A stretch of 64,000 nucleotides of DNA from Saccharothrix ecbatanensis. Lineage in GTDB: Bacteria > Actinomycetota > Actinomycetes > Mycobacteriales > Pseudonocardiaceae. The first letter of the stretch is position 1. Each line of letters begins with the position of its first letter. This document shows, in pieces, positions 1 through 62,475 of the stretch. The stretch spans positions 3,348,001-3,412,000 of the forward strand of contig NZ_JACHMO010000001.1 in the NCBI RefSeq assembly GCF_014205015.1. Reading direction: 5' to 3'. Below the pieces are notes generated by a model. The model did not search any database. It was not told the origin of the DNA and saw nothing but the letters and a program-made list of their open reading frames with translations. A program made the position numbers and the translations under genes.

Positions 1-615
1 CGCGGAGCAAGCCGTGCAGGCCTACCGCCGTGCCGCAGACGTGGAGGGCGAGTGCCACGCGCTGGTGGCGATGATCACCGTGCTGACCGACGTACCGGAT
101 CCGCAGCGGCTGGCAGTCGCGCTGAACCGACTGTCCACCCTGGACGCGGACAGCGCCCGGTGGTGGCGCGAGTACTCCACCACGATGCACTCCGGTGACC
201 TCGACCGCACGATCAGCGGCCTGCGTTGGTGCGTCGACCACGCCGGGCTGTTGGGCTACCACGGGCGCGCGAACCGGAAGTGCTGTGGTACGGCGAGCTG
301 GCGCGGTACCGGCTGAGGGCCCGGCTCTTCGTGCTCGCGGCGTGCCACGCGGGTACCGGCTCGGTGGAGTTCGGCTCGGAGTACGTCGGCTTCCCCGGCG
401 CGTTCCTCGCGGCAGGCGCACGTCAGGTCCTCGCGCCGCTGTGGGCGGTGTCCGACACCTCGACCGCCCTGCTCATGCGGCACTTCTACACGGCGCTCGC
501 CACTCCGGTGTCGCCGGCGGCGGCGTTGCGCGAGGCCCAGCAGCAGGTAGCGGCGAACCCCGCCACCGCACACCCGTACCACTGGGCGGGTTTCCAGCTG
601 TTCGGTGCCGCATGA
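1..615 (+). pseudogene. Broken CHAT-domain protein, C-terminal fragment entering from the left edge
   Basis: Two reading frames together look like the end of a TPR-CHAT protein. Frame 2 (from the window edge to a stop at 316) gives a helical, TPR-like stretch (AYRRAADVEGE) and ends near GYHGRAN, which resembles the His-containing CHAT strand. Frame 1 (about 270 to 615) gives the second half of a CHAT protease: LFVLAACHAG with the catalytic-type Cys, then GFPGAFLAAGARQVLAPLWAV, and a typical CHAT tail ending HPYHWAGFQLFGAA. The frame change lies between about 265 and 300. Most of the region normally found between the TPRs and the His strand is missing, so a deletion plus a frame change is the simplest reading. 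A separate downstream start (226) making only the CHAT tail is possible but would lack the His strand. The stop overlaps the ATG of the next gene (ATGA). Confidence 0.6.
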
Positions 616-1883: not shown

Positions 1884-4800
1884 TCAGGGGCCGATGTGGT
1901 GGTAGCCGATCCAGGCCGCGAGCGGGTGGTCGGAGCGCACTTCCCTGAGCACTTCGGTGAGGCACCGCGCGGCGTCCGTTGCGGTGAGCCGTCCCGGTGC
2001 GCGCAGCCGCTCGTACACCATTCCTGCGACCAGGCGGGCGGTGCTGTCGCCGACGGAGTTCAGGTTCGCCACCACGTGGCGGAAGCCGGCGACGTGGAAC
2101 GCGCCCGCGAGGTGGATCGCCTCGTCCGGCAGGTCCGCGCCGCCGATTCCGCTCTCGCACGACGACAGGTAGGCGAACTCGGCGGTCGAGAGGTCGAACC
2201 GGGCCAGGTCGATCGCCGCCAGGCCGCCGTCGTGCAGGTCGAGTCGGGTCTCGGCGGGGTGGCGCAGGTCCTGGCTGCTGTGCCCGGCGTAGTGCAACCA
2301 CGAGTGCCCCGACACCGCCGTGCGGACCGCCGTCACGGTCGCCTGCGCGGAGTCCAGCACGCTCCTGACCGTGCCGAGGGACGCGATCTCGTCCAGCGCG
2401 TGTGGCAACGGTGTCTTCCCGGGCGTCTCCGGCATTGCGACGGCCAGCACGTCCGCCTCCACCTCGGGCCGCGCGCGTGCGGTGAGGAGCGCGCGCAACG
2501 TCGGTGTGTACGACGAGACGACCTGATCGAGCACACCGGTGTCGGACAGCGTCACGGGGTCGTACCACTGTGCCGCGTGCAGTGGGAGGAGGCCGAACGG
2601 TCCGACCGGGCACCACCACAGCCGGTCGGCGCCGTCGACGACGGCCAGCACCTTCTCCGCGACCGAGCGCCACAGCCACTCCAGCACGGCGCGGAGCCTG
2701 CCGTTCACCTCGGCCCGCTGCTCGCCCGGCAGGCCGTAGTAGTCGCGGACGCGCACCACGGTGTCCAGGTACAGCCGGGCGACCTCACCGGGGTCGAGCC
2801 GACCGAGCTCGACGACCTCGATCCGGCCGTCAGCGATGACCAGCGCGTCGCACCGGCTCGACGCGGCATTCACGACCACGACCGGCCCGTGGTCGCCGAC
2901 CGCCCGGAGTCGGTCGAACGACGGTGCGCGCAGGAAGTCCGGGAAGCCGTCCGCACGCACGGACGCGACCAGGCGGTCCCACTCGGCGGCCAACGCGGTG
3001 CGCCGGTCCGCGTCACCGGTCGAACCGTCCAGCGCCGCTCTCAACTCGTCCAGCCGGGCGGTCGTCGCGGGTGGGAGGTCGGCCCGGTCGCGGCGGACGC
3101 CGACAACCTGGTTCCACAGCACGGAACGCCCCTGCTCCAACAGTTCTACCGCGCACTCCGGCACACCGGCGGAGATCGCCGCGGCAGCCGCCTCCCCCGC
3201 GACGGCGCCGAACCTCGTCAGCAGGAGTTCCTGGTCACGGCGGCCCAGACCTCTCCACGCCAGCGTGTCCAGCAGGTCCACGGCGTGCCCGTAGCCCTCC
3301 ACCGCGGCCACATGATCGCCCACCTCGCCCATCAACTCGCCCCACGCGCGGGCCGCCGACGCGCGGATCAGCACCGGAGCGCCCACCTCGGCCACCGCGC
3401 GGCGATAGGCGTCGTGGGCGGCACCCGGGCCGTCCGGGTCGGCGAGCCGCCGAAAGCGCGTCGCGTGCGCGTTGCCGAGGTTGTACAGGTGGGTGGCGGC
3501 ACGCCGGTCGCCCGGTGGTGTGCTGTCGACGGCGTCGTCCAGGGCCGTGATCGCGGCGTCCATGGTGGCAGGTTCGCCAGTGACCTCGTACTGTCGGAAC
3601 AACGTGGTGCCGAGTCCGCCGAGGTGGGTCGGACGGTCGATGTGTCCCAGGTCGAGCGCGTCCAGTGCTTCGCGCCGCAACGCGATCGCCATGTCGAGCA
3701 GTTCCATGTCACCCGTGCGCCGGTGCAGGTCCACCAGCCCTGAGCTGAGGTTGCCCTGCCGGCCGGGCAGGGACGGATCACCGGGCGCGGAGGCGTGGAC
3801 AGCCGCGGCCAGCGTTTCGACGGCCTGCTTCAGGACTTCGTCGCGGCGCTCCACCTCGAACCGGGCCGACAGCGCGTTGCCCAGGTTGGTCAGCGAGTGG
3901 GGGCGGTGCGGGTGGCCCTCGGCGGCGGCCTCGACGGCGTCGCGGTGCACGGCGATCGCCTCGTCCAGCGACGGCGTGTCGCCGGTGTGCTCGTACCGGC
4001 GCATCAGCACGTTGCCGAGGTTCGTCAGGTAGGCGGCGCGTCGCGGGTCGAGCGGCTGGTTTCCGTCGACCGCCGCGCGCGCCACCCGGACCGCCGCGTC
4101 GATTGCCGCCACGTCGCCGGTCAGCTCGAACCGGGTGCCCAGTGCGGTCGACAGATTCGTGGCGTGGACCGGGTGGTCGGCATGCCCTGGTGGGGTCTCG
4201 TCGACAGCCGCCTCGGCGATGGTGAGGGCATGGTCGAGCAGGTCGGTCCGACCGGTCCGCCCCGCCATTTCGGTGAGGGCCATCGCCAGGCTCGACAACA
4301 GCTCCGGACGGCTGGGGTCGCCGGGTTCCAGCGCGTCGACGGCGTCCTGCGCGGCCTTGGTGGACTCCTGGAGCACGAGGAGGTCTCCGTTGCGCCGGAA
4401 CGCCGTGCGCAACAGGGCACTCCACCCGCTCAACACCCGCGCCGTCCCGGTCGGCAGCACGCGTTCGTGCTCGTGCAGTGCCTCGGCGAGCGCGTCTTCG
4501 TCACCGGCGTGCTCGAACGACAGCCTCAGCGCCGCGGTGAGCCCGGTGGTGAACAGAACGCGGTCGGGGCTCGTGTCGGGCACGGCGGCGACCGCCGACC
4601 GGTAGTGCGTGACCGCCTCCGCCAACGCGTCCAGCGCGCCGGTCAGGTCGAACCGCTCGCGCAGCGCGTTGGCCAGGGCGAACGCCTTCCGCGCGTGGTC
4701 GACGCCGCCGTCCGCCAGCGCGGCGCGGAGCACGTCGACGGACCGTTCGACCACCTCGACGTCGCCTTTCGCAGCGCCTCGCAGGCGCAGGGCGGTGCCC

Positions 4801-5624
4801 AGCCCGAGCAGGCAGCGCGACCGCTCGGGGTGGCCCGGGGGTGTGCTCGGCAGGAGGTCGGAGAGCATGGTGAGCGCGTCGTCAACGAACCCGTGACCGC
4901 CGGTCCGATGGTGGAGTTCGATGAGCAGGTGCCCCAGGTTGCACGCGGCCACGACGCGGACCGGATGCCCTTCCGGCGTCGAGCCGACTGCGTCGCGGAG
5001 CAGTTCCAGCGCGCGGAGCCCGTCTTGGACGCCGCCTGTCGCGGCGTACCGACGTAACAGCACGCCGCCGAGGGCTCCGGCAGCCATCGGGTTGGCCGGT
5101 GCGAGACGGGTCGCTTCCTTCAACACGGCCACCGCGCGGTCCAAGTCCTCCCGGTCGCCCTGCCACTCGAACGACACGCGCAGCCCGTCGCCGAGGTTGA
5201 CCAGGTAGAGCGGCAGGTTGTCGGTGGCGTCGGTGGCGGCGATCTCCAAGGCGGTGACCGCGGCCGTGAGCACTTCCGGATCTGGGGCGAGATCGAGTCC
5301 GCGAAGCAGGGCGACGCCGAGGAACAGGTGGCAGTTCGGGCGGTGCGGGTGGCCGGGTCCGGTGCGCTCGGTCGCCTCGGTGAGCAGGTCCAGCGCGGTC
5401 CGGAGGTCCCGCGGGTCGCGGCGCAGGTGGAAGCGCAGCGACCACGCGCTGCCCAGGTTCCCCTGCCGGGCCGGGCGCATCGGATCGTCCTGGGCGGTGG
5501 CTTCCAGACCGGCGGTGAGCAGCTTGATCCCCCGGTCGAGCGCCTCCTGGTCGCCGGTCGCCTCGGCGGCCTGCAAGAGCGGGGCGGCGGCGGCGGTGAA
5601 CGCGCGCGGGTCTGGTTCGGTCAT
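1884..5624 (-). CDS. TPR-repeat CHAT-domain protease (last gene of a CATRA-like operon)
   Basis: The protein has 1246 residues and looks cytoplasmic. Residues about 10-830 are tandem helical repeats of the actinobacterial TPR type, with recurring units such as NLGNVLMRRYEHTGD about every 45 residues. The C-terminal third is a CHAT (caspase-HetF-associated) peptidase. The catalytic-type His is in LHYAGHS (about residue 1115) and the Cys in AYLSSCESG (about 1155). The family-typical DEAIHLAGAFHVAGFRHVV follows. The usual LWPVDD strand is altered to NLNSVGDS, a small deviation. The ATG was chosen because it overlaps the stop of the upstream cyclase-like gene (ATGA at 5622-5626). It is the final gene of a four-gene overlapping operon. 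The likely role is a protease effector released when the TPR part senses a partner. That role follows from the family; the trigger is unknown. Confidence 0.85.
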   Translation of the reverse strand: MTEPDPRAFTAAAAPLLQAAEATGDQEALDRGIKLLTAGLEATAQDDPMRPARQGNLGSAWSLRFHLRRDPRDLRTALDLLTEATERTGPGHPHRPNCHLFLGVALLRGLDLAPDPEVLTAAVTALEIAATDATDNLPLYLVNLGDGLRVSFEWQGDREDLDRAVAVLKEATRLAPANPMAAGALGGVLLRRYAATGGVQDGLRALELLRDAVGSTPEGHPVRVVAACNLGHLLIELHHRTGGHGFVDDALTMLSDLLPSTPPGHPERSRCLLGLGTALRLRGAAKGDVEVVERSVDVLRAALADGGVDHARKAFALANALRERFDLTGALDALAEAVTHYRSAVAAVPDTSPDRVLFTTGLTAALRLSFEHAGDEDALAEALHEHERVLPTGTARVLSGWSALLRTAFRRNGDLLVLQESTKAAQDAVDALEPGDPSRPELLSSLAMALTEMAGRTGRTDLLDHALTIAEAAVDETPPGHADHPVHATNLSTALGTRFELTGDVAAIDAAVRVARAAVDGNQPLDPRRAAYLTNLGNVLMRRYEHTGDTPSLDEAIAVHRDAVEAAAEGHPHRPHSLTNLGNALSARFEVERRDEVLKQAVETLAAAVHASAPGDPSLPGRQGNLSSGLVDLHRRTGDMELLDMAIALRREALDALDLGHIDRPTHLGGLGTTLFRQYEVTGEPATMDAAITALDDAVDSTPPGDRRAATHLYNLGNAHATRFRRLADPDGPGAAHDAYRRAVAEVGAPVLIRASAARAWGELMGEVGDHVAAVEGYGHAVDLLDTLAWRGLGRRDQELLLTRFGAVAGEAAAAAISAGVPECAVELLEQGRSVLWNQVVGVRRDRADLPPATTARLDELRAALDGSTGDADRRTALAAEWDRLVASVRADGFPDFLRAPSFDRLRAVGDHGPVVVVNAASSRCDALVIADGRIEVVELGRLDPGEVARLYLDTVVRVRDYYGLPGEQRAEVNGRLRAVLEWLWRSVAEKVLAVVDGADRLWWCPVGPFGLLPLHAAQWYDPVTLSDTGVLDQVVSSYTPTLRALLTARARPEVEADVLAVAMPETPGKTPLPHALDEIASLGTVRSVLDSAQATVTAVRTAVSGHSWLHYAGHSSQDLRHPAETRLDLHDGGLAAIDLARFDLSTAEFAYLSSCESGIGGADLPDEAIHLAGAFHVAGFRHVVANLNSVGDSTARLVAGMVYERLRAPGRLTATDAARCLTEVLREVRSDHPLAAWIGYHHIGP

Positions 5625-6748
5625 CAGCGTTCCGGGACGTGGATCCAGGCGGGCTCGGTGAACCCCTTCTCCGGCTGGTCCACCGTGGCCGGGTGGAACG
5701 ACTCGGGAATGAGGTCGCCGTAGCCGTGCGCGATGACGTCCCGGTAGAGCGAGTCGGGCACGATCAGCGCCAGGTCGGCCCGCGGTGTCGTGGCCAGCGC
5801 CCGGCGCAGCGGCGCGGAGTCCAGCATTCGGTGCACGGCGATCGCGGCGGTGCCGACCCACCCGTTGGGCACCGCGCCGATGGTGCCCCGGTGCAACGCG
5901 ACCCGGATGCGCAGCCTGGCGTGGTCGTTGAGATCGGCGTTCGCGCGTCGCAGTGCCGTGCCGAGGCCCGCCACCAGACCGGGGATTACCGCGGTCTCGT
6001 CCAGCCCCGTGGGCAGGACGGCGAACTGCCCGTCGCCCGCGTTCTCCACCCGCACGGCCGACTCGTCCACACCCGCGAGTTCCCGTGCCATGCTCAGGAG
6101 TTCGCGGAACCGCTCCTGGGCACGGGCCGCTTCGGGGTTGCGGAACCGGCGGTAGTTCTCCACGTCGGCGGCCAGGCACAGACGAACGGTCGGAGTGGTC
6201 GACGGCACGGTCCGAACCGGACGGCCGACCGGCGCCCGTCGGTCCGCGGGCAGCGGCTCGGTGAACACCCACGGCCGCTCGACGCGGGCGTGGCGGATCC
6301 TCCGCAGCGGCACCACAGGCAGGAGCGGACCGGTCAGCGAGGCGTCGAGCCGTACCCGCACGGCGAGCACGTCGACACCGTCGGGCACGTCCAGCGCAGC
6401 GGTCGCGGTGAAGCGCCGCACATCGAGCGCACGGTCGTTGAAGCCACCGAGGAACCACCCGAACGTGCGATCGCCGAGGCCGGAGACGGCCACCGGCACG
6501 CCCGCGTCGCACCACAGGTCCACCGGCCGGATCCGGTTGTCATCCAAGCCGACGCGCAGGAACAGCGCGGTGTGACGCCACCTGGGGAGCAGGTCGCCGA
6601 GTTCGACGCGGACCACCATCCGCACCCGACCGTTCCCGTCGACGTCGAGGACGGGCCGTCCGACGGCCGCCGTGGTCACCGGCCGAACCCGCGTGCCGCC
6701 CGCCGACCACCGCCGCACGGTCATCTCGCGCGGTTCGAGCGCGGTCAT
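5624..6748 (-). CDS. Nucleotidyl-cyclase-like protein with N-terminal beta-rich domain (CATRA-like)
   Basis: The product has 374 residues. The first ~170 residues form a beta-rich domain (LFLRVGLDDNRIRPVDLW, FGWFLGGFNDRALDV) that I cannot assign to a named family. Residues about 195-330 read as a class III nucleotidyl-cyclase fold. ADVENYRRF carries the first metal-type Asp, NAGDGQFAVLP the second, and RIRVALHRG and GTAAIAVHRMLD follow. In the last motif the usual transition-state Asn position is Ile while the Arg is kept, so activity may be altered or lost and the domain may only bind nucleotide. Both ends are translationally coupled: the start ATG overlaps the NUDIX stop and the stop overlaps the CHAT start. 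The arrangement resembles the caspase/TPR-associated component of conflict systems called CATRA, a name recalled from memory and not checked. Confidence 0.72.
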   Translation of the reverse strand: MTALEPREMTVRRWSAGGTRVRPVTTAAVGRPVLDVDGNGRVRMVVRVELGDLLPRWRHTALFLRVGLDDNRIRPVDLWCDAGVPVAVSGLGDRTFGWFLGGFNDRALDVRRFTATAALDVPDGVDVLAVRVRLDASLTGPLLPVVPLRRIRHARVERPWVFTEPLPADRRAPVGRPVRTVPSTTPTVRLCLAADVENYRRFRNPEAARAQERFRELLSMARELAGVDESAVRVENAGDGQFAVLPTGLDETAVIPGLVAGLGTALRRANADLNDHARLRIRVALHRGTIGAVPNGWVGTAAIAVHRMLDSAPLRRALATTPRADLALIVPDSLYRDVIAHGYGDLIPESFHPATVDQPEKGFTEPAWIHVPER

Positions 6749-7452
6749 TGGACCGGGGGCAGGTCGGCCCCGGTGCGCCGGGTGCCGACGAGGTAGGCAG
6801 TGTGCGGCGCGATGAGGGAGTGCCCGGCCCGTCCGTGCACGATCTCCGCGGCGGTCGCGCTGACCACCGTCGACACCCCCGGGTCGACGCTCAGGGCCAC
6901 TACCGCCTCCCTCAGGCGTTCCGAGGCGCCGCCGGTGACCACCAGGTCGTGCACCTCGAACAGGCGGGCCTGGCGGTAGTCCTTGCCGGACACCGGGTAC
7001 GGGCCTTCCGACACCGTCCGCACGTGCGCCAGGCCGACCTCGCGCACCCGGTCGCCCAGGTCGGGGAAGCCGACCTCCGTCAGTTCCTCGGTCAGCTCCC
7101 GGCGCAGGCACTCCTGGGCGTCCTCCCGGTAGGCGCCGCTGGCAAACCACTGCCGGAAGCCCGCGAACGAGCGCAGTGGCAGCACACCCCGCAGGTCCGC
7201 CCGCGTGCGCACGCCGCGCGAGCTGTGCCGCTCGGGTTGGAAGCCCAGGTGTTCCAGCAGTTCGACCGCGGGCGGGAAGTACTTGAACACGCCGCCGGGC
7301 GGTGCATAGGCGCCCGGACGGGAGGAGGTGTGGAACAGCACGAACCGGTCGTCGTCCCGGATGCGCAGCAACGCGCAGTAGGAGATCCGCACGGCCCGGC
7401 TGGGTCGTGCACTGCTCGGCCGTGGGCCAGGCCGGAAGACCAGCGAACCCAT
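6745..7452 (-). CDS. NUDIX hydrolase of the SMODS-associated type
   Basis: The product has 235 residues. A near-canonical Nudix box is visible at about residues 120-140. It contains CLRRELTEELTE (the R-E-x-x-E-E core) with the upstream Glu at the expected spacing, while the final Gly of the consensus is not present. The preceding PPGGVFKYFPPAVELLEHLGF is the segment typical of SMODS-associated (Cap16-like) NUDIX proteins, which process or sense nucleotide signals in defence operons. The ATG at 7452 lies 5 bp after the stop of the small upstream gene, and its own stop overlaps the start of the cyclase-like gene. The pairing of a NUDIX with a cyclase-like fold suggests that the operon makes, senses or clears a nucleotide signal. 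That is inference; substrate cannot be read from sequence. Confidence 0.75.
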   Translation of the reverse strand: MGSLVFRPGPRPSSARPSRAVRISYCALLRIRDDDRFVLFHTSSRPGAYAPPGGVFKYFPPAVELLEHLGFQPERHSSRGVRTRADLRGVLPLRSFAGFRQWFASGAYREDAQECLRRELTEELTEVGFPDLGDRVREVGLAHVRTVSEGPYPVSGKDYRQARLFEVHDLVVTGGASERLREAVVALSVDPGVSTVVSATAAEIVHGRAGHSLIAPHTAYLVGTRRTGADLPPVQ

Positions 7453-7457
7453 ACCCG

Positions 7458-7817
7458 CTACCCGCTCGGCCGCATGTCCGCCGCGAACAAGTCGCAGCTC
7501 GGTGACCGCCCGAGCACCGGCGTGGCCAGCCGGTCGCACACCTCGTCCGGGCACACGTGGTCGGACGCCTCCGGTGCCGCCGACCACGGCCGCCACGGCC
7601 GGTCGGAGTCGCCGTTGCGCGACCCGCCGGACTCCTCCGCCGCACGCAGCCGCTCGATGTCCGCCAGCAGCACGCGCCACTCCGGCAGCGCCCGGGTGCC
7701 GGCACGTGTGCGCTCCACGAGCCGGGTCAGCCGCGCGCGCAACCCGAACCGGTTCGCGTCCCGCAGGATCTCCTGGAACTCCGCGCAGATCCGCGCCCAC
7801 TCGGCCGCATCGCCCAT
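7458..7817 (-). CDS. Small helical protein with C-terminal Cys motif (CATRA-associated small protein type)
   Basis: This is the first gene of the four-gene minus-strand operon. From the ATG at 7817 it encodes 119 residues. That start follows GGGAG closely; an ATG at 7832 and a GTG at 7844 are alternatives. Residues 1-60 are amphipathic helix (ARICAEFQEILRDA). The C-terminus carries CPDEVCDR, then GRSPSC and a Met, which looks like a three-Cys metal or redox motif. A divergent small protein at 62.1 kb next to another TPR-CHAT gene has the same layout and motif (CPDGSCDR then ALPRC). The gene ends 5 bp before the NUDIX start. It is probably a regulatory or adaptor subunit of the system; no enzymatic domain is seen. 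Confidence 0.7.
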   Translation of the reverse strand: MGDAAEWARICAEFQEILRDANRFGLRARLTRLVERTRAGTRALPEWRVLLADIERLRAAEESGGSRNGDSDRPWRPWSAAPEASDHVCPDEVCDRLATPVLGRSPSCDLFAADMRPSG

Positions 7818-7895: not shown

Positions 7896-10800
7896 GTGGT
7901 GGACGTGGAAATAACCTTCGCGCCCGACATCAACCTCACGGTCCGCAGAATTGCGGAAATACGGACGGCATTGCGCCGGATTCCGCCGCGCCCGCTGCCC
8001 GGCGGGTGGAGCGTCACGCCCGACCACATCGAGGTGACCGGGCTCATCGGCGGCGGTCTCAGCGGCGCGGTGGTCGCGCAGGTGCTCCTGCACCGCGGCG
8101 ACCAGCAGCTGCGCCGGATCGCGAAGATCGCCCCGGCAGCCGAGATGATGAGGGAGCTGCGGAACTACACCGACATCGTGCAGTCCCACGTCAACGCCGT
8201 CTGCGCGCCGATCGACGCCTCGTCGGTGCCCGCGGACGGATCGTCCGACCAGCTCGAAGCGCTGGTGTACGACCACGTGGCGCAGTTCGCGGGCAGTCCG
8301 GACACCGAGGCGATCACGTTGGAGGACCTTGTCCGCCACGGCGACAGCGATCGCGCCGTCCTCGCGGTCGAACGCCTCTTCACCGGCATGGCGTCGCCGT
8401 TCCACCAGCGGACGGCGCTCCGCAAGCACAAGTCGCTGCGCGACTTGAACGCGACGCTCGGCCCGGACATCGTCCTCCGCGCCGGGGAAGTGGACTGCGA
8501 CCACACGTTGGGGGAGGAAATCTTCCAGACGTCCCTCGGCGCGGACGGGGTCGTGGCGGGCAGCGGGATCAGGCTCAAGGACGTGGAGTGGTGGGCAGGG
8601 ACGCCGCTCGGCAGGCTTGAGGACATCACGGTCCTGCTGGAGGGCGGTGACCCGGGCTCGGTCGTGAGCGGTCACGTGGTGCGGACGCGGTTCGACTGGC
8701 ACGCCGAGCGCATCGCGGGCGCGTTCGGCAGCTTCACGCGCGTTGGCGGTGCCCACGGCTCTGACGACTGGGTGGTAGCCGACGGGGTGCGGTGCGGCGA
8801 CCCGTCCGCAGGTTTGCGCAAGGCGTTGACCGACACCAGGTTCGGTCGCGCGCTCACCGTGGTGCACGGCGATCTCAACCCGCGCAACGTGATGGTGGTG
8901 CCGGGCGGCGACCAGGTGATCCTGATCGACTACGCGCGCACGGCCGAGGAGCAGCCGGTGCTGGTCGACCCGGCGTGGCTGGAGGTCTGCCTGTTGCGCA
9001 ACGTCCACTCGGAACTGGGGTTCGCCGAACTGTTGCGGCTGCAACGGGCGTTGGGGCTCGCCGGCCGGCTGCTGTCGCTGGGCTGCGCCGCCGACGACGT
9101 CGGGACGGCGTGCGCGGGCGTCGTCGGGGACGGGCCGGTGTCCGCCGCGTTTCGAGTGCTGTTCGCGATCCGTGCGCAGGCGGCGAGGGCCTACCCGTTC
9201 CGGGACGAGTGGTGGGCCGCGCACGCGGCGATGCTGCTGCTGTGCGCCCACCGCACCGTCAAGTGGGACGACGATAACCAGACCGACGCGCGGTTGCGGG
9301 TTGCCGCCGCGGTCGCGTCCGTGGCGGGCGAGTGGCTGGCCGACGCCGGACCGTTCACCCATTGGGTGGATCTCGAACCGGTGTTGCACGCGGTCACGTC
9401 CGTGCTCCGCCCCGCCACCTCAGAGGCGGTGGGGTTCGTCTCCGCACTGGCGGCGGCGGTCGGTCCATCGGTCGCCGTGGACGACCTGCGCGACCAGGTG
9501 CTGCGGAACACGCGCCGGGAGGAAGCGGGCCGGGTGGTGATCGGCTTCGCCGACGATGCCGTCGAACTGGTCGAGCTCGACGGCGACGCGGTCGGCCCGG
9601 AGGGCGGCGAGTTCGGTCAGGTCTGGCGGCTCGTGGCCGACCGGATGGAGTGCACCCTGGTCGCCGAGTCGGGCGGGGGCAAGACCACCGCCATGCGAGC
9701 GCTCGCGTACCGGATGGCGCTGGACGTGGTCGGCGAACGCGCCCGAACCGCGCTCGACGGTCCGATGCGGATGGTGGCGCACGTGGACGCGCGGGCGATC
9801 GCCGACCGGGGCGACGACGCGCTGCCTGAGCGCGCCCTGCTCGTCCTCGGCGCGGCGCACCTCGTCGTGGACGACTTCGGCCTGCTCCCACCGCCAGCAC
9901 GCGCGCGGGTCGGCCGCCGGCTGCGCGAACTCCGCCGCCGCTACCCCCGCACGCCCGTGGTGGTGCTCGAACGCGACTCCGACCACGCGCCGCCGATGTT
10001 TCCCGAGGTGCGGATCCGACCGCTCACCCCTCAGCAGGTCTACGACCACATCGAGCGACTCGTGGTGCTGCGGCGGACGCAGCCCGCGTACGGCCGGCTG
10101 CTCCTCGACCGGCTCCCCACCACCTGGCCGGAATCGCACCGCGTGTTGCAGCTTCCCGCCGGCCTCGCGGAGTTCATCCGCATCGGCCACATCGCGCTGA
10201 CGAGCGCGGCGGTGTTCACGGCGGGACTCGGCGAGGAGGAGAAGACCGGTCTGCCGGCCGTCGCCGCGCACGTTCTCGACGACGGCGGTGACGCGAGGGC
10301 GTTCCGGTCGCGGGCACAGCTCGACCACTTCGCCGCGCTCGCGTTGGACCGCATGTCCGATCACGAGGTGCGGCTGCGGGCACGCCGGTTCCGTTGGCGC
10401 GAGTCCTGCCTGCTCGCGGTGGAACTCGCCGGCACGGGTTCCAGGATCACCCAGGCGATCGTCACCGAGGCGATCGACACGGACCCGCCGTTCGCGGGCG
10501 CGTTGCTCGCCCGGCTCCGTCACCCGCCGGCCGATCTGGTGTCGCGCTTCCTCGTGGCGCAACGGGAAGTGCTGGACCAGGACTGGCGCAGCGGCGCGGA
10601 GGTGGACCGCGCGGTGCGGGCGCTCGTCGCGTTCGGCAGGCCGGACGCCTACCACGTTCTGGTCGAGACCGGGTCGTTCAACGGGATGGCGGCGCTCCGC
10701 CGTGGCATGCGCCCCGGACCGGACCGTGACCGGGTGGACGAGGCCTTCCGGCAGGTGGCGGCGCCGGCGTTGGACCCGGTGGCGTCGGATGGCACGAAGG

Positions 10801-12218
10801 TGGCGGCGTTGCGGGCCGTCGTCGGTGTGCCAGGGCTGGAACTGTTGATCGGCGAACTGGTCTCGGACCCGACCTGGGCGGTGGCGGACGAGGCGTGGAC
10901 TGCGTTGTTGCGCCTGGGCTCGGCGGTGCCGCCGCGGCTGCAGGAGGCGTACGTCCACCACCTGCGTGACCGGCTCGCCGCGGTCGAGGCAGAGCTGCCG
11001 CGCACGGCCGTGGTCGCGCGCAAGGTGTCATTGCAGGACGAGCGCGTGAATCTGCTGCGGCACTTGGCCGATCCGGAGGCCTTGCTCGAACGGAGGTTCC
11101 GCTACGAGATCGCGGACGAGGTGGCCGACTCTCTGCACGGCCTTGGCGCGTTCGTCGGCGAAGTCGACAGCGTGTACGGGCTGGCGGACCTGCCCGTGCG
11201 CGAGGCGGAACTGATCGCCCACCAGGCGCTGACCGAGCACGCGGACGCATTCGTCGCGGCGGCGTCAGCGACGTCGGGTGAACACCTGCTGCTGATCGCC
11301 GCCGCCGCGCTGCCGCACGCCGGGAGTGCCGCGGTGCCGCATGTGGTCCAAGTGGTGCGCGACCTCGTCCCCGTGGTGGAGGAGGACCGGTTCGAGGGGT
11401 GCGCCGCGTTGCTGAACGCCGTCGCGGTGGTGGACGCGGCGGAAGGCGCCCGGCTCGCCGAGACGTGCGCGGAGACCCTGTTCGAGCGGAACGTGCGGGG
11501 CAGGCTCACGTGGCCGTGGTCGACCTCGATCGCCCGTGCCCGTGCCGGGTCGACCGGGCTCGGCGCCCTGGCCGCGGACGACTTCCACCGCGACGGAAGG
11601 CGGCCGAACGAGGTGCCCGCCGAGCTGGACGGCCTGGTGGAGCACAGCGCGACCCCGCTGTGGGCCGTCGCCGTCGCCACGGCCGGTCTCACGGAGGCAC
11701 TCCCCCGGATCCGGCCGTTGGTCGCGGAGTACGCCGACCAGGCACCGGTCCTCGTGAGCAGCCCGCGTTACGGCGTGCTGGAACTCGCGCCGGCAGCCGA
11801 CATGCTGTCGTCGGTCGGGTACCTGGCCAGGCTCGCGCACGACCAGGGTGAGCAGGAGGCCGAGGTGGCGAACATCGTGCGCCTGCTGCACGACACCGGT
11901 CTCGACGCGAAGCACTCCAGCCTGCGCGAGGCCAGGCTCATCGGCGCCGGCTACCTCGGCGACTGGGTTCCGCTGGTCGAGGCGTTGGACGACGGTGAAC
12001 GGCTGCGGGTGGCGGCCGCGCACGCGGTGAGCCAGTGGACACCCGGTCCGGCCACCCCCACCGCGTTGCGGGAGTCCGTGGCGATCGCGCAGTGGCTGGC
12101 GGACCGGCTCGCCGACCCTGGCTTGTCCCGGTCGGCACGCGAGGTGCTGGTGGCGCTGACGGACGTCGTGGAACAGCGAGCCGGCGCACGGGCCGGCCGA
12201 GGCGTCGCCGGTCCGTGA
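7896..12218 (+). CDS. APH-like kinase / P-loop NTPase / alpha-solenoid protein (ternary-system type)
   Basis: The product has 1440 residues. The N-terminal ~480 residues carry an aminoglycoside-phosphotransferase-like kinase core: VVHGDLNPRNVMV at about 321-333 (catalytic loop) and ILIDYA about 15 residues later (the DFG-equivalent Asp). This resembles the kinase-like domain I recall as ternary complex associated domain 9; the name is unchecked. A second core follows: Walker A AESGGGKTT at about 588-596 and Walker B-like HLVVDDFG at about 655. From about residue 800 to the end the protein is helical, HEAT-like solenoid without further motifs. The GTG start follows GGGGG at a 4-nt gap. The gene is divergent to the CATRA-like operon and ends 3 bp from a convergent caspase gene. 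It may be the NTP-dependent switch of the neighbouring protease effectors, by inference. Confidence 0.75.
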   Translation: MVDVEITFAPDINLTVRRIAEIRTALRRIPPRPLPGGWSVTPDHIEVTGLIGGGLSGAVVAQVLLHRGDQQLRRIAKIAPAAEMMRELRNYTDIVQSHVNAVCAPIDASSVPADGSSDQLEALVYDHVAQFAGSPDTEAITLEDLVRHGDSDRAVLAVERLFTGMASPFHQRTALRKHKSLRDLNATLGPDIVLRAGEVDCDHTLGEEIFQTSLGADGVVAGSGIRLKDVEWWAGTPLGRLEDITVLLEGGDPGSVVSGHVVRTRFDWHAERIAGAFGSFTRVGGAHGSDDWVVADGVRCGDPSAGLRKALTDTRFGRALTVVHGDLNPRNVMVVPGGDQVILIDYARTAEEQPVLVDPAWLEVCLLRNVHSELGFAELLRLQRALGLAGRLLSLGCAADDVGTACAGVVGDGPVSAAFRVLFAIRAQAARAYPFRDEWWAAHAAMLLLCAHRTVKWDDDNQTDARLRVAAAVASVAGEWLADAGPFTHWVDLEPVLHAVTSVLRPATSEAVGFVSALAAAVGPSVAVDDLRDQVLRNTRREEAGRVVIGFADDAVELVELDGDAVGPEGGEFGQVWRLVADRMECTLVAESGGGKTTAMRALAYRMALDVVGERARTALDGPMRMVAHVDARAIADRGDDALPERALLVLGAAHLVVDDFGLLPPPARARVGRRLRELRRRYPRTPVVVLERDSDHAPPMFPEVRIRPLTPQQVYDHIERLVVLRRTQPAYGRLLLDRLPTTWPESHRVLQLPAGLAEFIRIGHIALTSAAVFTAGLGEEEKTGLPAVAAHVLDDGGDARAFRSRAQLDHFAALALDRMSDHEVRLRARRFRWRESCLLAVELAGTGSRITQAIVTEAIDTDPPFAGALLARLRHPPADLVSRFLVAQREVLDQDWRSGAEVDRAVRALVAFGRPDAYHVLVETGSFNGMAALRRGMRPGPDRDRVDEAFRQVAAPALDPVASDGTKVAALRAVVGVPGLELLIGELVSDPTWAVADEAWTALLRLGSAVPPRLQEAYVHHLRDRLAAVEAELPRTAVVARKVSLQDERVNLLRHLADPEALLERRFRYEIADEVADSLHGLGAFVGEVDSVYGLADLPVREAELIAHQALTEHADAFVAAASATSGEHLLLIAAAALPHAGSAAVPHVVQVVRDLVPVVEEDRFEGCAALLNAVAVVDAAEGARLAETCAETLFERNVRGRLTWPWSTSIARARAGSTGLGALAADDFHRDGRRPNEVPAELDGLVEHSATPLWAVAVATAGLTEALPRIRPLVAEYADQAPVLVSSPRYGVLELAPAADMLSSVGYLARLAHDQGEQEAEVANIVRLLHDTGLDAKHSSLREARLIGAGYLGDWVPLVEALDDGERLRVAAAHAVSQWTPGPATPTALRESVAIAQWLADRLADPGLSRSAREVLVALTDVVEQRAGARAGRGVAGP

Positions 12219-12221
12219 CGG

Positions 12222-14132
12222 TCAGTGGGCGCAGGCGTCGCCGCCCGGGCACAGCGAGAACGTCAGGTTCCTGATCAGGAACCGCACCGCCGCCGGGTCG
12301 ACGCCACCGACGTCCCGCCGGCCCGACCGCAGGATGTCGGCCAACTCCTCCGACGCCGACCGGGGACGTCCACGGTGGCCGACGCCGTCCTGGGTGAGGC
12401 CGCGCAGGTCTTGAGGGCTGTCCGAGAACACCGCGAGCAACGTCTCGAACCGCGCGGACCCGGCCGGCAGGTCTCGCGGCCACGTCAGCGGCAGCCCCGG
12501 CTCGTGCCCACCCGGCTCGGCGCCCAGCGGGCGCGTGACCCCGGCGCGAAGCTCGACACCCGAGGGTTCGGTGCTGTTCAGGATCGTCACCCGGCCACCG
12601 ACACCCAGGTCGACGACGTTGGCGTAGACCGGCTTCCCGTTCGCCGCGCCGTTGCGCACGCGGATCCGCAGCCGCTCGCCCACGTGCACGACCGGGTTCT
12701 CCGCCGACAGCGACCGACCGCCGACCACGGTGACGGCCAGCTCGACGGGGGCGTCGAAGTCGCCGTCGTCCGCCCGCAACGACAGGTCACGCAGCCGTGC
12801 CGCGGTGACCAGGTGGCCGACCTCCCGCCGGAGGCGGTCGACACCCAGGCTGTCCACCGCCCGCCGGTCGGCGTGCAGCGCCCGGCCCGCGGCGTCCTCC
12901 AGCCGGTAACCGCCATCGGTGAGGACCACGGTCGCGAGCTCCCCACCACAGGCCGTCCCGCCCTGGTGCACTTCGACAACATCCGCCAGTGCCGTCATCA
13001 GGTCGACCGGCGGCGGACCGGAGAGGCTGTCCACCCGGACGACCTGCTTCGACCGCCTCGGCTCGACCCGCCGGGCGACTACGCCCGGCGGCACCTCCGC
13101 GCCGCCCTCCACGACCAAGTACGCCGAGCCGCCGCTCACCACGTTGACCGTCGCCCGCACGGCCTCCGCTCCCCCGACGCGCTCGACCGGAACCAGCAGC
13201 AGGCGCTCACCGCGCTCCAAACCGTGCAGGAACGCACCGTCGACGCGTGCCTGTCCGGTAAGGAGGTCGACGCTCACCGGCAGGGTCGGCGAGGCAGCCT
13301 CCGTGTCCTCGGTGAACACCACCCGCTCCACCGGCCCCTCGATCTCCGGGCGCTGTGACGGGTTGAGGTTGAGCACACCGGGCCGGATGCGATCCGCCAC
13401 GTCGTGCCACGTCGTGTGCGGCGTATCTGCCAGCTCGGCGACCAATGCGGCGGTCAGCAACCCGTGGACCCGCCCCAACCGGGGCGAGTGGCGTTCGTGG
13501 GCGAGCTGGCTCTGGCTGCACGCGAGGACTCGGACCGCGTGCGGGTTGGCGTCGTACCACTCGGAACCCGGGTGCGCCGCCCTCAGTCGGCGGAAGTCCT
13601 CGGCCGCTGCCTGCCTGCGCGCCTCAATGCCGCTGCTCGGCCACTTCCCGGTCCTGGCCCGCGCTTTGAGGCCGGCCTGAGGCCAGTCGCGCGACATCCG
13701 GCCGGAGAAGCAGCAGTCGAGGATCGTCGTGACGTTGGTCGTGCGCAAGGAAAGCCGCCATTGCAGGACGCTCAACTCCTCCGCGAGCACGCCGCGAAAA
13801 TCGTCCTCCGTGCTGTCGTCGATGTCAGTCGGCTGGATGAAGCGGAACTCTTCGTCGCCGTTCTCGTCATCAACGAAGAGACCGCCGTGCCCGGCATAGA
13901 AGAAGACCGCCGCGTCTCCCGGTCGGCTGACCCGCACCAGTCGGTCGTAAGCGTCGAGGATGCCCGCGCGCGTCGCTGTGGACCCTCCGATCCGGACGAC
14001 GTCGAAACCCCTACGCCGCAACAAGGACTCGACAACCTCGGCATCGTTGTTGCAGCCGGTCAGGCCGCCGACCTCGCAGGCGACGACAAGCGCGCGACGC
14101 GCTCCGCCGGGCTGTCCACCTGATCGCCACAC
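12222..14132 (-). CDS. Caspase-family (metacaspase-like) protease with C-terminal beta-rich domain
   Basis: The product has 636 residues. The N-terminal caspase fold is clear: RALVVACEVGGLTGCNNDA, then FFYAGHGGLF with the catalytic-type His (about residue 82) and TTILDCCFSGR with the Cys (about 140). The C-terminal half has beta-rich segments (HVGERLRIRVRNG, KPVYANVVDLGVGGRVTIL) resembling DUF4384, which often follows peptidase C14 domains. The GTG start at 14132 was chosen because GAGGAGG lies 6 nt upstream. The longer reading to 14180 would overlap the upstream CHAT gene. It is encoded 16 bp downstream of the 1535-residue TPR-CHAT gene in the same direction, so two caspase-superfamily proteases of different clans are co-transcribed. 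No signal peptide is seen, so a cytoplasmic protease is expected. Confidence 0.82.
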   Translation of the reverse strand: MWRSGGQPGGARRALVVACEVGGLTGCNNDAEVVESLLRRRGFDVVRIGGSTATRAGILDAYDRLVRVSRPGDAAVFFYAGHGGLFVDDENGDEEFRFIQPTDIDDSTEDDFRGVLAEELSVLQWRLSLRTTNVTTILDCCFSGRMSRDWPQAGLKARARTGKWPSSGIEARRQAAAEDFRRLRAAHPGSEWYDANPHAVRVLACSQSQLAHERHSPRLGRVHGLLTAALVAELADTPHTTWHDVADRIRPGVLNLNPSQRPEIEGPVERVVFTEDTEAASPTLPVSVDLLTGQARVDGAFLHGLERGERLLLVPVERVGGAEAVRATVNVVSGGSAYLVVEGGAEVPPGVVARRVEPRRSKQVVRVDSLSGPPPVDLMTALADVVEVHQGGTACGGELATVVLTDGGYRLEDAAGRALHADRRAVDSLGVDRLRREVGHLVTAARLRDLSLRADDGDFDAPVELAVTVVGGRSLSAENPVVHVGERLRIRVRNGAANGKPVYANVVDLGVGGRVTILNSTEPSGVELRAGVTRPLGAEPGGHEPGLPLTWPRDLPAGSARFETLLAVFSDSPQDLRGLTQDGVGHRGRPRSASEELADILRSGRRDVGGVDPAAVRFLIRNLTFSLCPGGDACAH

Positions 14133-14148
14133 CGGCCGCCTCCTCGTT

Positions 14149-17100
14149 TCACGGGCGTAGCACGAAACCACCTGGATCACCCTGGCAGATGAACGCGCCC
14201 CAGTAGTACGGGTGCGGCCGTTGCCTCCTCAGCTCCAGCTGTGCGTGTCGCAGAGCGGCAGCCCGTCCCTCACCGGCCACGATCCGCCGGTAGAAGTCGG
14301 TCATCAACGTCTGCGTCTCGTCATCAGGCACCCGCCACAGGCTCATCACGACCGTGCGTGCCCCGGCCGAGGTGAACGCACGGCGCAGGCCGAGCACGCC
14401 CTCACCGACGTGGTGGCTGCCCAGACCGGTCTCGCAGGCCGACAGGGTGACCAGCTCGGTCCCGGCCAGATCCATCCCCGACACGTCCTCCGCGGTGAGG
14501 ATCCCGTCCTCCGCCTCGGCCGGCAGCACGCCACCGGCCAGCCAGGTGTTCGCCCCGGCCAGGGCGAGGCCGGAGTGCAGGAACGGGCTGTCGCGGGCGT
14601 TCGACAGTCGGCCGAGCAGCGGGGCGGCGAGGGCAGCCGGCGCTGGGCGATCCCGCTCCCGGTCGGTGTCCGGCAAGAAGTAGCCGTGGGTGGCGATGTG
14701 CAGGACCGTCGGGCGCAGGCAGGACTTCGCGGCCGCTTCGGTGGCGGCGGCCCCCATGAGCGGGCGCACGCCCAGCAGTGCGGCGACCGCCCGACCCTCC
14801 CGGTTGGTGCCGTGCAGCCGGTCGAAGCTCAGCCCGGCCTGGCGCAGGCCCCTGGTGGTCCGGTCACCTGGATCTCTGGACGTACCCGATGCGGACAGGT
14901 CGAAGTCGGGATCCGCGATGACCACCGAGGCCGTGCCCTCTCCCGTCGACGGGGTCGAGACGCGCAGCAGGTCGCGTCCGCATCCGAGGTAGCTGATCTC
15001 GTAGTCGTCGATGAGGCGACGGTCGGACGAGACGGGCAGCACCTCCCAGGGCAGGCGGGACATGTCGCCGTCCGGGCAGAGGAACAGGCGGCGGGCATCT
15101 CCGAGAGCCGGGCGGAGGGGGTCGAAGACCGCAGCTCGCAGGGCGGTGCCCGCGTCGAGTTCGGCGGTGTCCGCAGCCGGTTCGTGCGGCACGAGGTCGC
15201 GGGCGGTCCCCGTCCCGACGGCCTCGTCCCGGTAACCGGCCACCAGCCGATCGATCTTCTCGGCGTCCCCGAGGTCGATCAGCCGCAGACCCTCATCGGG
15301 CCGCAGGATGAAGGCCCAGTACCGCATCCGCGTCCTGGCCGGGTCCTGGCCCGACTTCGGGACCGTGAACGAGAGCAGCCCGAAACACACGATCTCGACC
15401 AGCGCCGAGCGCGGCGGCAGCAGGGACCGCAGTGATCGCCCGCTCAGCTGCCGCACGCGTTGTTGCAGGTGTGTCGCGGGAACGGCCCGTGACAGCTCGG
15501 CCTCCAGGCGTTCCTTCTCCTCGGTCCAGGCGACGAGCACGTCCAGGTGGGCCCTTTGCCCTTCCGGCCCTGGACCGCTCAGCGTCTTGCGGGCGATCTT
15601 CTCCCGCAACGAGCGCACGTGCGCGATTCTCGGCTCCAGGTCGGAAACACCGCCCACCCGGATCTCGTCGCGCACCGACGCCTGCGCCTCGCCCGAGAGC
15701 CCTTTGCGGCGCAGGACCAGGTCAAAGGCCTGCGCGACCTCGTCATCAGGGGCGCCGAGGGCGGCCACCAGGCTCAGCAGGGCGGACAACTGCAAGTACT
15801 GGCGACCGAGCCGGTTCACCTGCAGCCGCTCCGAGGCGGTCGCGAACGCGTCGAAGAGCAGGCGCGAGTGGACGTGCTCAGCTTCCATCGTCAGGGCGAA
15901 CGCTCCGCGTGTGTCGCCCTCCAGGGCGTGCAGCACGCCCAGGTTGGCGACCACTGTGGCGCTGAGCGGGTGCACAGGTCCGACAAGCCGGTCCAGGGTC
16001 GCGCGGCTTTCCAGCAGGACGCCCCGTGCCTCGTCGAACCGCCCGGTCATCATGTAGGCGTTGGCGAGCAAGCCTGCTCCCACCGCGCGACCAAGGCTCT
16101 CGGCCCGACCGGCGTTCCGGCTGATTTCCAGCGCGGACCGCAACTCGGACTCGGCGTCCTCGTACCGCTGCTGCTCCAGGTACAGGTGGGCCAACGCCTG
16201 ACCGGCGGTGGCCAGATCCGGATGACCCGCGGGCAGCACCGCCCGGAAGGTCTCCTGCGCCTGCACGAGGCAGTGCTCGGCCCGCTCGTACTCGCCGATC
16301 TCCATGAGCATTCCGCCGAAGTTCTTCAGCGTCCGCGCGTACTCGGGATGATCCGGCCCGAGTGACTCCCACATGGACCGCAGCGCCGCGTTGCAGAGGA
16401 GGATCGCCCGCTGGGTATCGCCCATCTCGCGGCAGACCTCTGCCAGGTTGGCCTGCACCTGTGCGTATTGCGCGTCCTCGGTGCGGTCCGCGAGCCGAAG
16501 TTGTTCCAGCGCGTCGAGCAGCACCGGCTCCGCCAGTTCGAACCGCGCGAGATCGGCGTGGATGTTGCCGAGGACGTTCAGCGCACCGGCGACCAGGAAC
16601 CGGTTGCCGTGTTCCTGTCCTTTCGCGACGGTCACCAGGTCGCTCAGCACCTGCTCGGCCCGGACCAGGTCTCCTGCGTAGTAGGTCACGAGGCCGACGT
16701 TGTAGTGACTTTGCGTCCGCTCCGGGGAGTTCTCCTCCAGACCGGCCGCCAACCGCAGGCTCTCCTCGGCCAGGCCGGCGGCCTCCGCGATGTCCTTGCG
16801 CGCGAGCAGATCGGTCGCCTTCGCGTTGATCTCCTGGACCCGCGCCGCCAGGTCGCGATCGGACGCACGCGGGGCGGCACGCAGGATCCGTCCTGCCATC
16901 CAGGCCTCGAAGCAGTCCACACCGGAGGCCGCGCAGGCGCGCAACCCGGCAACCGCATCGTCACCGCGACCTTCGACGAAGTGCCGCTGGGCCGCGTAGT
17001 AGAGCAGTTGACAGGCTTTCTCGTCGTCGGCCGGCCACTCAACCTCGGTGGCTCCGGTTCGACCCAGCGTCAGCGCGATGAGCTGGAGCTGCCACGGGTC

Positions 17101-61400: not shown

Positions 61401-62104
61401 TGCAGGGTCGTCCCGAGGGTGCTCAGGAAGTACGACAGGTTGGGATTGCCGGGGTCCGCGGCGATCGCCTGCCGCGCGGCGTCTACGGCCTGATCGAGGT
61501 CGGTGAGGTCACCGGTGTGCTCGTAGCGGGAGTGCAGGGCCGCTCCCAGGTTGCCGAGGAACAGTGCCCGGTTCGGGTCGTTGTCACCCGTGGCGATCGC
61601 TTGGTGCAGGGCCTTGATGGCCTGGTCGAGGTCGGCGTGGTCGCCGACGATCCCGAACCGGGTCCAGCGCGCCGCGCCGAGGTTGCCGAGGTAGGTGCTG
61701 TGGAGCGTGATGGCCACCGCGCGGGTGAAGTGGTCGATCGCCCGGTCGAGGTCCGCCGCCTGCCCGGTCATCTCGAACCTCGACAGGTAGGTCGTGCCCA
61801 GGTTGCACCGGAAGAGCGCGTGGTTCGGCCCGACAGGGGCCGCCACGCCGTGTTCGAGGTGCACGATCGCCTGGTCGAGGTCCGCGACCTGGCCGGTGAA
61901 CCCGAACCTGGTCAGGTGGTACGTGCCCACGTTCGACACGAAGGTCACCCGATCAGGGTGGTCGACGCCCGCTGCGGCTATCGCCCGCAACCCGAGGTCG
62001 ATCGCCTGGTCCACCTCGTCGAGCCGCCCGGTCTGTTGCGCGCGAGTCCAGATCGCGAGCGCGTTTTCGGACAATGAGGTCGCATGATCGGATCCCGCAG
62101 CCAC
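58457..62104 (-). CDS. TPR-repeat CHAT-domain protease (second CHAT locus)
   Basis: The product has 1215 residues. About 15 tandem repeats of ~44 residues occupy residues 15-720, with units such as FLSTLGTTLHSRYERTGDLT and DLDQAI. The C-terminal CHAT domain has AHFACHAG (His near 1083), AYLSACATGQVG (Cys near 1124) and ESIHLASAFQLAGFRHVIAS followed by LWPLDD, all canonical. It belongs to the same subfamily as the protein at 1884-5624. The GTG start at 62104 has no clear ribosome binding site and lies only 3 bp from a possible GTG of the divergent gene. One of the two starts, or a leaderless transcript, may need correction. It is paired with the small Cys-motif protein rather than with cyclase and NUDIX genes. 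Confidence 0.85.
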   Translation of the reverse strand: MAAGSDHATSLSENALAIWTRAQQTGRLDEVDQAIDLGLRAIAAAGVDHPDRVTFVSNVGTYHLTRFGFTGQVADLDQAIVHLEHGVAAPVGPNHALFRCNLGTTYLSRFEMTGQAADLDRAIDHFTRAVAITLHSTYLGNLGAARWTRFGIVGDHADLDQAIKALHQAIATGDNDPNRALFLGNLGAALHSRYEHTGDLTDLDQAVDAARQAIAADPGNPNLSYFLSTLGTTLHSRYERTGDLTDLDQAIEHHERALVATPDRQAGLAMRLSNLGTTYRTRFDRTGRLSDLDRAIDAGQRAVALAGDSPRTATWLSNLGISYQTRFERTGHLADLDLAVELNERAVAATPDGHPEQGIRLANLTSAYTERHEHTGDVADVDRAIETGRRAIAVTRDEHPGLPAFLANLGMAHHYRYECTGDLADLELAVVRKQRAVALTPADHPDRAQRLSGLGMAHEARYGRTGRVADLDRAVECGREAVALTPVDHPDRALRLNNVASAYHERYAHLGSLSDLDRAVEFYERAVAATPDDHPRLVICLSNLGNVYLTRAKRASSLSDVDSAIATTRRAVDATPEDHPDRSLRLHNLAQAHLERFEQARAGDDVDLAVDLALQAVRTTPEGHPRRGLSLSTLSTAHQARFRHTRSLLDVDSAVTAARLALAATPDDHPNRAARLYRLALGYQNRFDAGADRPSHDELATLISQVDAVRAAPPGDRIMAGWAVGRLARALGEPESARRLLDNAVRLLPSVASRETSHTDQEHRLGGRIGLVGEAIGAHCALGDPGGALEVAEHSRGILLGAQLDSRTDLTDLATTHPELAGRFRLVRDNLNALDLGTDVVERRARLWTEYDALLDDIRSRPGLDRFLLPPSWKELRPAAGEVVVLVNAGWGQGDAIVIAASEPVHIPLPRLAAADVTSWATEMSDAINDPSPLVGELRRQRVVSDLLAWLWDAAVGPVLDVVAPIGRPTRRVWWMPTGRLGLLPLHAAAPRGGPGALDRVISSYTPTLRALAGSRGGAPASARRQLTVALQRTPGLPDLPATAAEATSPQSGHPGTVISDDQVTVNRVLAALPEASWAHFACHAGTDPRTPSEGCLHLHDGPLPIARISRLELHAAELAYLSACATGQVGWRHANESIHLASAFQLAGFRHVIASLWPLDDRTAATAAERFYALMPATSSAAHAPYALHAVTCELRAALPDRPHLWASLVHSGP

Positions 62105-62470: not shown

Positions 62471-62475
62471 CCGCG

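What the first reader, a model, noticed from the sequence alone, without database searches (positions are those of the whole stretch)
5624..7817. Overlapping NUDIX / cyclase-like / TPR-CHAT operon with a small Cys-motif leader gene
Seen directly: the last two junctions are ATGA overlaps and the first is a 5-bp gap, so stoichiometry is probably fixed by coupling. The NUDIX has an almost complete catalytic box and the cyclase-like protein keeps both metal Asp positions. A CHAT protease with intact His/Cys ends the unit. Established: CHAT and SMODS-NUDIX proteins act in NTP-dependent conflict systems, including those I recall as CATRA. Inference: the operon links nucleotide synthesis or sensing to proteolysis.
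Basis: partly seen in the sequence, partly recalled or inferred. Interest (0 to 1): 0.82.

Follow-up and report, generated by a model that had tools for sequence, protein, structure and literature searches.

The report
Nucleotide-cyclase, NUDIX and protease gene operon
A soil-type actinomycete carries a tightly packed set of genes that looks like an alarm circuit: a protein built like the enzymes that make cyclic-nucleotide signals, next to a NUDIX protein that may read or clear the signal, and a caspase-like protease; relatives carry the same two-gene core with other proteases or with classic cyclic-nucleotide receptors.

Summary
The four minus-strand genes are real: small four-cysteine protein (7458-7817), Sa_NUDIX protein (6745-7452), class III cyclase-fold protein (5624-6748), TPR-CHAT (1884-5624). 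One junction is misdescribed: cyclase/CHAT is TGATG, not ATGA. The conserved unit is not the four-gene operon (2 of 24 loci) but the NUDIX-cyclase pair, found in 24 actinomycete genomes, with a 4-nt overlap in 15. Around it recur a TCAD9 kinase/P-loop protein (12 of 24), the small protein (8), CHAT proteases (12) and CRP-type cyclic-nucleotide receptors (13); 20 random regions have none. The 374-residue protein keeps both metal aspartates and the transition-state arginine in 24 of 24 pairs but lacks the purine-recognition lysine/aspartate and the asparagine. Two pairs keep a NUDIX without its catalytic glutamates. Best reading: a cyclic-mononucleotide signalling conflict module; the TCAD9 protein senses, the cyclase signals, the NUDIX reads or clears, a CHAT or CRP-like protein responds. 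It works like Pycsar/CBASS but meets neither definition as tested here, and shows no CATRA domain. Activity, ligand and defence function are untested.

The parts
7458..7817 (-). small four-cysteine protein (119 aa), family with invariant C11 and CP...C.R...P.C; no Pfam, NCBIfam or PADLOC match at E <= 1
   Evidence: relatives divergent from TCAD9-like genes and a paralogue at 62126-62470
6745..7452 (-). SMODS-associated NUDIX protein (235 aa, or 215 aa if it starts at 7392); catalytic Glu residues present
5624..6748 (-). 374-aa protein: N-terminal all-beta part (about 1-165) plus class III nucleotide-cyclase domain (about 180-374); D195, D239, R307 kept
1884..5624 (-). TPR-CHAT protease (1246 aa), His and Cys motifs intact
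   Evidence: PF12770 E 2.8e-32, PF20308 TPR-S 28.8 bits against cut-off 27.6
7896..12218 (+). divergent TCAD9 protein (1440 aa) with kinase-type and P-loop motifs, proposed sensor/switch; the only TCAD9 over cut-off in the genome. STAND/AAA matches are below cut-off
   Evidence: PF19974 E 9.4e-89; genome scan; motifs HGDLNPRN, IDYAR, GGGKT, LVVDDF (read by eye)
12222..14180 (-). caspase-like (Peptidase_C14) protein, next gene in the island and also next to TCAD9 in S. carnea; membership of the module uncertain
   Evidence: PF00656 E 4e-13; PADLOC caspase model 3.2e-11

Best explanation
The operon is the signalling and killing half of an NTP-dependent conflict (probably anti-phage, abortive) module whose core is a NUDIX-cyclase gene pair. 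Proposed steps: (1) the divergently encoded TCAD9 kinase/P-loop protein senses an invader cue, with the small four-cysteine protein as a zinc-binding adaptor (inferred); (2) the class III cyclase-fold protein, gated by its N-terminal beta part, makes a cyclic mononucleotide (fold and conserved metal Asp/Arg shown; activity inferred); (3) the Sa_NUDIX protein binds that nucleotide, and where its glutamates are intact may also degrade it as an off-switch (inferred); (4) the output is the TPR-CHAT protease here, other CHAT proteases or a CRP-like cyclic-nucleotide-binding regulator in relatives (co-occurrence shown; activation inferred).
Against: The purine-recognition Lys and Asp are replaced (Q/E/D and G) and the Asn position is I/V/T, so the domain could bind a nucleotide without cyclising it. 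No CRP-like gene was found in this window. 12 of 24 pairs have no CHAT hit in the stretch examined. Seven Amycolatopsis-type loci share one arrangement, so counts are not independent events; the counting HMMs were seeded partly from these loci; 2 of the 20 control regions come from a genome with NUDIX only (G1037). The STAND nature of the TCAD9 protein rests on sub-threshold matches. No experiment, no phage data.
Confidence: 0.5

Rival explanations
1. The cyclase domain is a catalytically dead nucleotide sensor: it binds an NTP or cNMP and holds the NUDIX and CHAT proteins inactive by protein-protein contact, with no second messenger made.
For: Three of six canonical class III active-site residues (canon recalled) are missing. 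Kaur et al. [quoted passage not shown]
Against: Both metal Asp and the Arg are kept in 24 of 24 pairs; Ma1120, solved as an adenylyl cyclase, shows Ala at the Asn position in the printed alignment; cNMP-binding CRP-like regulators recur next door.
Confidence: 0.25
2. The NUDIX is a hydrolase that removes the signal or an NTP damage product, and the cyclase-CHAT link is a developmental or stress switch of multicellular actinomycetes, not defence.
For: The 15 named pair carriers belong to Saccharothrix, Kutzneria, Lentzea, Actinokineospora, Actinomadura, Amycolatopsis and Actinosynnema (titles; 9 of 24 are unnamed or the own genome), groups that I recall as filamentous; CRP-like output suggests gene regulation; all three glutamates are intact in 21 of 24 pairs.
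Against: Patchy distribution (5 of 25 genomes of the genus), neighbours typical of conflict systems (CHAT, caspase, TCAD9, pPIWI-RE), two pairs with a NUDIX that lacks its glutamates.
Confidence: 0.17
3. Clustering in a defence island: TPR-CHAT, small gene and TCAD9 protein are separate systems; only NUDIX-cyclase is one unit.
For: Full four-gene order in 2 of 24 loci; the small protein stands at the TCAD9 gene even where the NUDIX is over 2 kb away on its other side (L043, L044); three CHAT stretches and a caspase in the first 18.7 kb.
Against: 5-bp gap and overlaps; TCAD9 divergent from small-NUDIX-cyclase in the window, L041, L047 and L106; a CHAT gene directly follows or faces the cyclase in 12 of the 12 CHAT-positive loci; 0 of 20 controls.
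Confidence: 0.2

Closest known systems
[quoted passage not shown]
   Same: class III cyclase-fold protein in a compact operon; fold matches BcPycC (7r65) and the Anabaena uridylate cyclase (8jsz); metal Asp residues 44 apart as in EaPycC D102/D146 and AnPycC D62/D106 (PMC11224242, passages)
   Different: partner is Sa_NUDIX, not a cNMP-binding TM or TIR effector; CHAT protease as likely output; of the base-recognition residues of AnPycC (F60, K104, F109) only F109 has a counterpart by spacing (F242); those of BcPycC (Y50, D94, R97) could not be placed
CBASS with Cap16 (TM segments fused to a NUDIX domain)
   Same: same NUDIX family, PF18167; three PADLOC 2TM-effector models and RTasNUDIX match it
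   Different: no SMODS in the operon; the genome's one SMODS match lies at 7.63 Mb, the window at 3.35-3.41 Mb; no membrane stretch seen by eye in this NUDIX
VMAP/MoxR-vWA and related NTP-dependent conflict systems (Kaur et al. 2020)
   Same: cNMP cyclase domains, caspase-like proteases and STAND NTPases in multicellular prokaryotes (PMC7159879, passages); TCAD9 is named as associated with vWA-MoxR-VMAP (PMC10910872, figure legend)
   Different: no MoxR, vWA or VMAP match among the 16 window proteins scanned with Pfam
Craspase TPR-CHAT (Csx29)
   Same: TPR-CHAT architecture
   Different: no NCBIfam Csx29 match for this protein at E <= 1; proposed activation by a nucleotide module instead of Cas7-11

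Membership tests
class III nucleotide cyclase fold | class III catalytic domain fold | tested here: met
class III nucleotide cyclase fold | two metal-binding Asp | tested here: met
   D195 and D239 in 24 of 24 pairs
class III nucleotide cyclase fold | purine-specifying Lys/Asp and Asn/Arg pair (canon recalled; positions from the 3mr7 and Ma1120 alignments) | tested here: not met
   only Arg307 kept; 235 is Q/E/D, 296 is G, 303 is I/V/T in 24 pairs (alignment). Speaks against adenylate specificity, does not exclude activity
Sa_NUDIX (PF18167) | Pfam match over cut-off 25 bits | tested here: met
   115.7 bits
CHAT protease (PF12770) | Pfam match over cut-off 24 bits and His/Cys pair | tested here: met
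   112.7 bits
CBASS | CD-NTase (SMODS, PF18144) gene in the operon | tested here: not met
   no SMODS match in the six genes scanned; the single genomic SMODS match is over 4 Mb away
Pycsar | effector with cyclic-nucleotide-binding domain beside the cyclase | tested here: not met
   no CRP-like cNMP-binding match in the 64-kb window (HMM of CRP-like proteins); present as CRP-like regulators, not TM/TIR effectors, in 13 of 24 relatives
Pycsar | synthesis of cCMP or cUMP and phage protection | not testable with these tools
   needs enzyme and plaque assays
CATRA | CATRA domains with caspase and TPR repeats | tested here: not met
   no CATRA model matched the operon proteins at E <= 1; CATRA-C 0 matches in the genome, but no control genome rang. 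The defining paper is not held
VMAP/MoxR-vWA ternary system | MoxR ATPase, vWA protein and VMAP in one neighbourhood | tested here: inconclusive
   none among 16 window proteins scanned with Pfam; the remaining window genes were not scanned

The most novel reading that the evidence does not exclude
A Pycsar-like immune circuit for which I found no description in the library searched: a class III cyclase with non-adenylate base recognition makes a cyclic mononucleotide read by a stand-alone Sa_NUDIX receptor, switching on a CHAT protease, under control of a kinase/P-loop sensor (TCAD9); in relatives the same signal drives CRP-like transcription factors instead of, or beside, the protease.
Probability: 0.3. 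Interest if true: 0.82.

Novelty: new variant of a known kind. Interest (0 to 1): 0.6.

Why it matters
If true, it joins two arms of bacterial immunity that are usually studied apart, cyclic-nucleotide alarms and caspase-like proteases, and gives Sa_NUDIX domains a partner outside CBASS. The presence of a CHAT protease, a CRP-like regulator or both beside one conserved signalling pair makes the ligand question testable with a small set of purified proteins.

Full report
Observation. The window is G000:C1:3348001-3412000 of a 9.69-Mb genome. On the minus strand lie, in order of transcription, a 119-aa ORF (7458-7817), a 235-aa ORF (6745-7452), a 374-aa ORF (5624-6748) and a 1246-aa ORF (1884-5624). 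The first gap is 5 bp, or 65 bp if the NUDIX starts at 7392 as my gene caller and the database copy P0044 have it. NUDIX/cyclase is an ATGA overlap. Pfam gives Sa_NUDIX (115.7 bits), CHAT (112.7 bits) with TPR repeats, and nothing over cut-off for the small and 374-aa proteins. Divergently, 78 bp upstream, is a 1440-aa TCAD9 protein (PF19974, 298.9 bits) with P-loop and kinase-type motifs, then a caspase-like gene.

Neighbourhood survey. Whole-genome searches found the NUDIX in 31 of 390 genomes of the own family at E <= 1e-10, in 12 of 341 of the family of an Actinomadura genome at E <= 1e-40, and in 1 of 396 of a phylum sample, the own genome. The cyclase follows the NUDIX on the same strand in 18 of those 390 genomes (16, plus two Actinosynnema-type genomes) and in 6 of the 341: 24 pairs in 24 genomes, 15 of them named. 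Several secondary NUDIX matches had no locus fetched and were not examined; in three unpaired loci (L059, L071, L093) the contig ends just behind the NUDIX, so a cyclase could not be seen. NUDIX stop and nearest in-frame cyclase start overlap by 4 nt in 15 of 24 (taking the nearest start favours short distances). In the genus, 5 of 25 genomes carry a (near-)full-length match; among the 36 loci fetched those five have NUDIX in the fetched stretch and the other 31, which match mainly the C-terminal domain, do not (many further paralogue matches were not fetched).

Partners. With profile HMMs built from several members, the 24 loci (about 10 kb on each side where available) hold CHAT in 12, CRP-like regulators in 13, TCAD9 in 12 and the small protein in 8; 20 random 20-kb regions hold none of the four (Fisher 1.3e-4, 5.0e-5, 1.3e-4, 4.9e-3). 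Caveats: the HMM seeds come partly from these loci; seven loci (L054, L068, L107-L111; two named Amycolatopsis) share one arrangement; locus lengths differ; for L066 the small protein and TCAD9 come from a second stretch, 11-12 kb away (L113); 2 of the 20 control regions are from G1037, which has NUDIX without cyclase, the other 18 from pair carriers. Among the 17 named NUDIX loci without a cyclase the counts were CHAT 2, CRP 1, TCAD9 1, small 1, though Pfam shows partial TCAD9 matches over cut-off in two of them, L062 and L063, that my HMM missed. CHAT neighbours come as TPR-CHAT (window, S. carnea), stand-alone CHAT plus a second CHAT (Actinomadura terrae, Pfam) and a CHAT with a NEW3-like N-terminus facing the cyclase (Pfam for L106; by HMM in L047 and the seven Amycolatopsis-type loci); 16 of the 17 CHAT rows aligned keep His and Cys, the other being cut by the end of the stretch (its Cys is there) (three of the rows are the window's CHATs). 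CRP-like genes carry PF00027 and the Crp HTH in the five loci tested (L106 with two copies, L042, L043, L047, L049), and the GE of the phosphate-binding cassette is kept in 19 of 21 copies beside pairs. TCAD9 divergent from small-NUDIX-cyclase recurs in the window, L041, L047 and L106 (L106 is Kibdelosporangium phytohabitans judging by its contig length). The small family has four invariant cysteines in 11 sequences; a paralogue at 62126-62470 of this window is divergent from another TPR-CHAT.

Mechanism. Shown: gene order, families, fold, conserved residues, co-occurrence. Inferred: that the cyclase makes a cyclic mononucleotide, that the NUDIX reads or clears it, that CHAT or CRP-like proteins respond, that the TCAD9 protein senses, and that the purpose is conflict. 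The CRP-like neighbours are the strongest argument for a cNMP; the invariant Asp/Asp/Arg is the strongest for catalysis; the missing Lys/Asp/Asn is the strongest against.

Membership. It works like nucleotide second-messenger immunity. It is not CBASS as tested (no SMODS in the operon; the one SMODS match is at 7.63 Mb), does not meet the Pycsar effector criterion in this window, and has no CATRA domain. PADLOC matches the NUDIX to three 2TM effector models and RTasNUDIX and the caspase gene to a caspase model; its TCAD9 matches are weak and the small, cyclase-like and CHAT proteins have none at E <= 1. No held paper was found that describes the pair (searches under Tried and rejected); two likely sources are not held, so novelty is provisional.

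Noticed in passing
window 58457-63375: A second TPR-CHAT gene (58457-62074, minus) with a divergent paralogue of the four-cysteine small protein (62126-62470) followed by a 299-aa gene without Pfam match: the small family may go with CHAT or TCAD9 genes in general.
   Followed up: partly
window 14149-18732: A 1527-aa TPR-CHAT protein directly behind the caspase-like gene; with the operon's CHAT and a CHAT tail at 280-615 this makes three CHAT stretches and a caspase in 18.7 kb.
   Followed up: partly
window 14-615: CHAT C-terminal part at 280-615 in a different frame from the ORF at 14-316, at the window edge; may be a broken or cut gene. A 796-aa gene with a CHAT match stands at the like place in S. 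carnea (L041 14657-17047).
   Followed up: no
L112 3-9915 (G010): A same-genus genome keeps the NUDIX, but no cyclase was found beside it; 5 of 6 neighbouring proteins scanned match phage head, portal or terminase families (PHROGs).
   Followed up: partly
L113 1-17080 (same locus as L066, Saccharothrix sp. ALI-22-I): The pair sits beside a pPIWI-RE gene, with a caspase-helicase fusion and a small-protein/TCAD9 pair further on.
   Followed up: partly
L060, L062-L064, L072 (Streptomyces by title) and L055, L058, L061: Cyclase-less relatives of the NUDIX. In A1 three cyclase-less type proteins (P0159, P0161, P0163) begin with a hydrophobic stretch like a membrane anchor (by eye). In L062 and L063 the next gene has a partial TCAD9 match; in L065 (Micromonospora) the next gene has NACHT and a weak TIR match.
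   Followed up: partly
L054, L068, L106-L111: Conserved gene run facing the cyclase: NEW3-CHAT, an about 80-aa and a 554-642-aa cysteine-rich protein (zinc-finger-like by eye), a 488-517-aa protein without a Pfam match in L106, two CRP-like regulators and, in 7 of the 8 stretches, a large protein resembling the C-terminal half of the TCAD9 protein.
   Followed up: partly
own genome, G000:C1:7632808-7633302: Single SMODS (CD-NTase) match, a probable separate CBASS-type locus.
   Followed up: no
L058 / P0163: A 498,000-base contig titled Rhodococcus rhodnii has the same length as the contig of P0163, which a source names Kibdelosporangium aridum: one of the two labels may be wrong.
   Followed up: no
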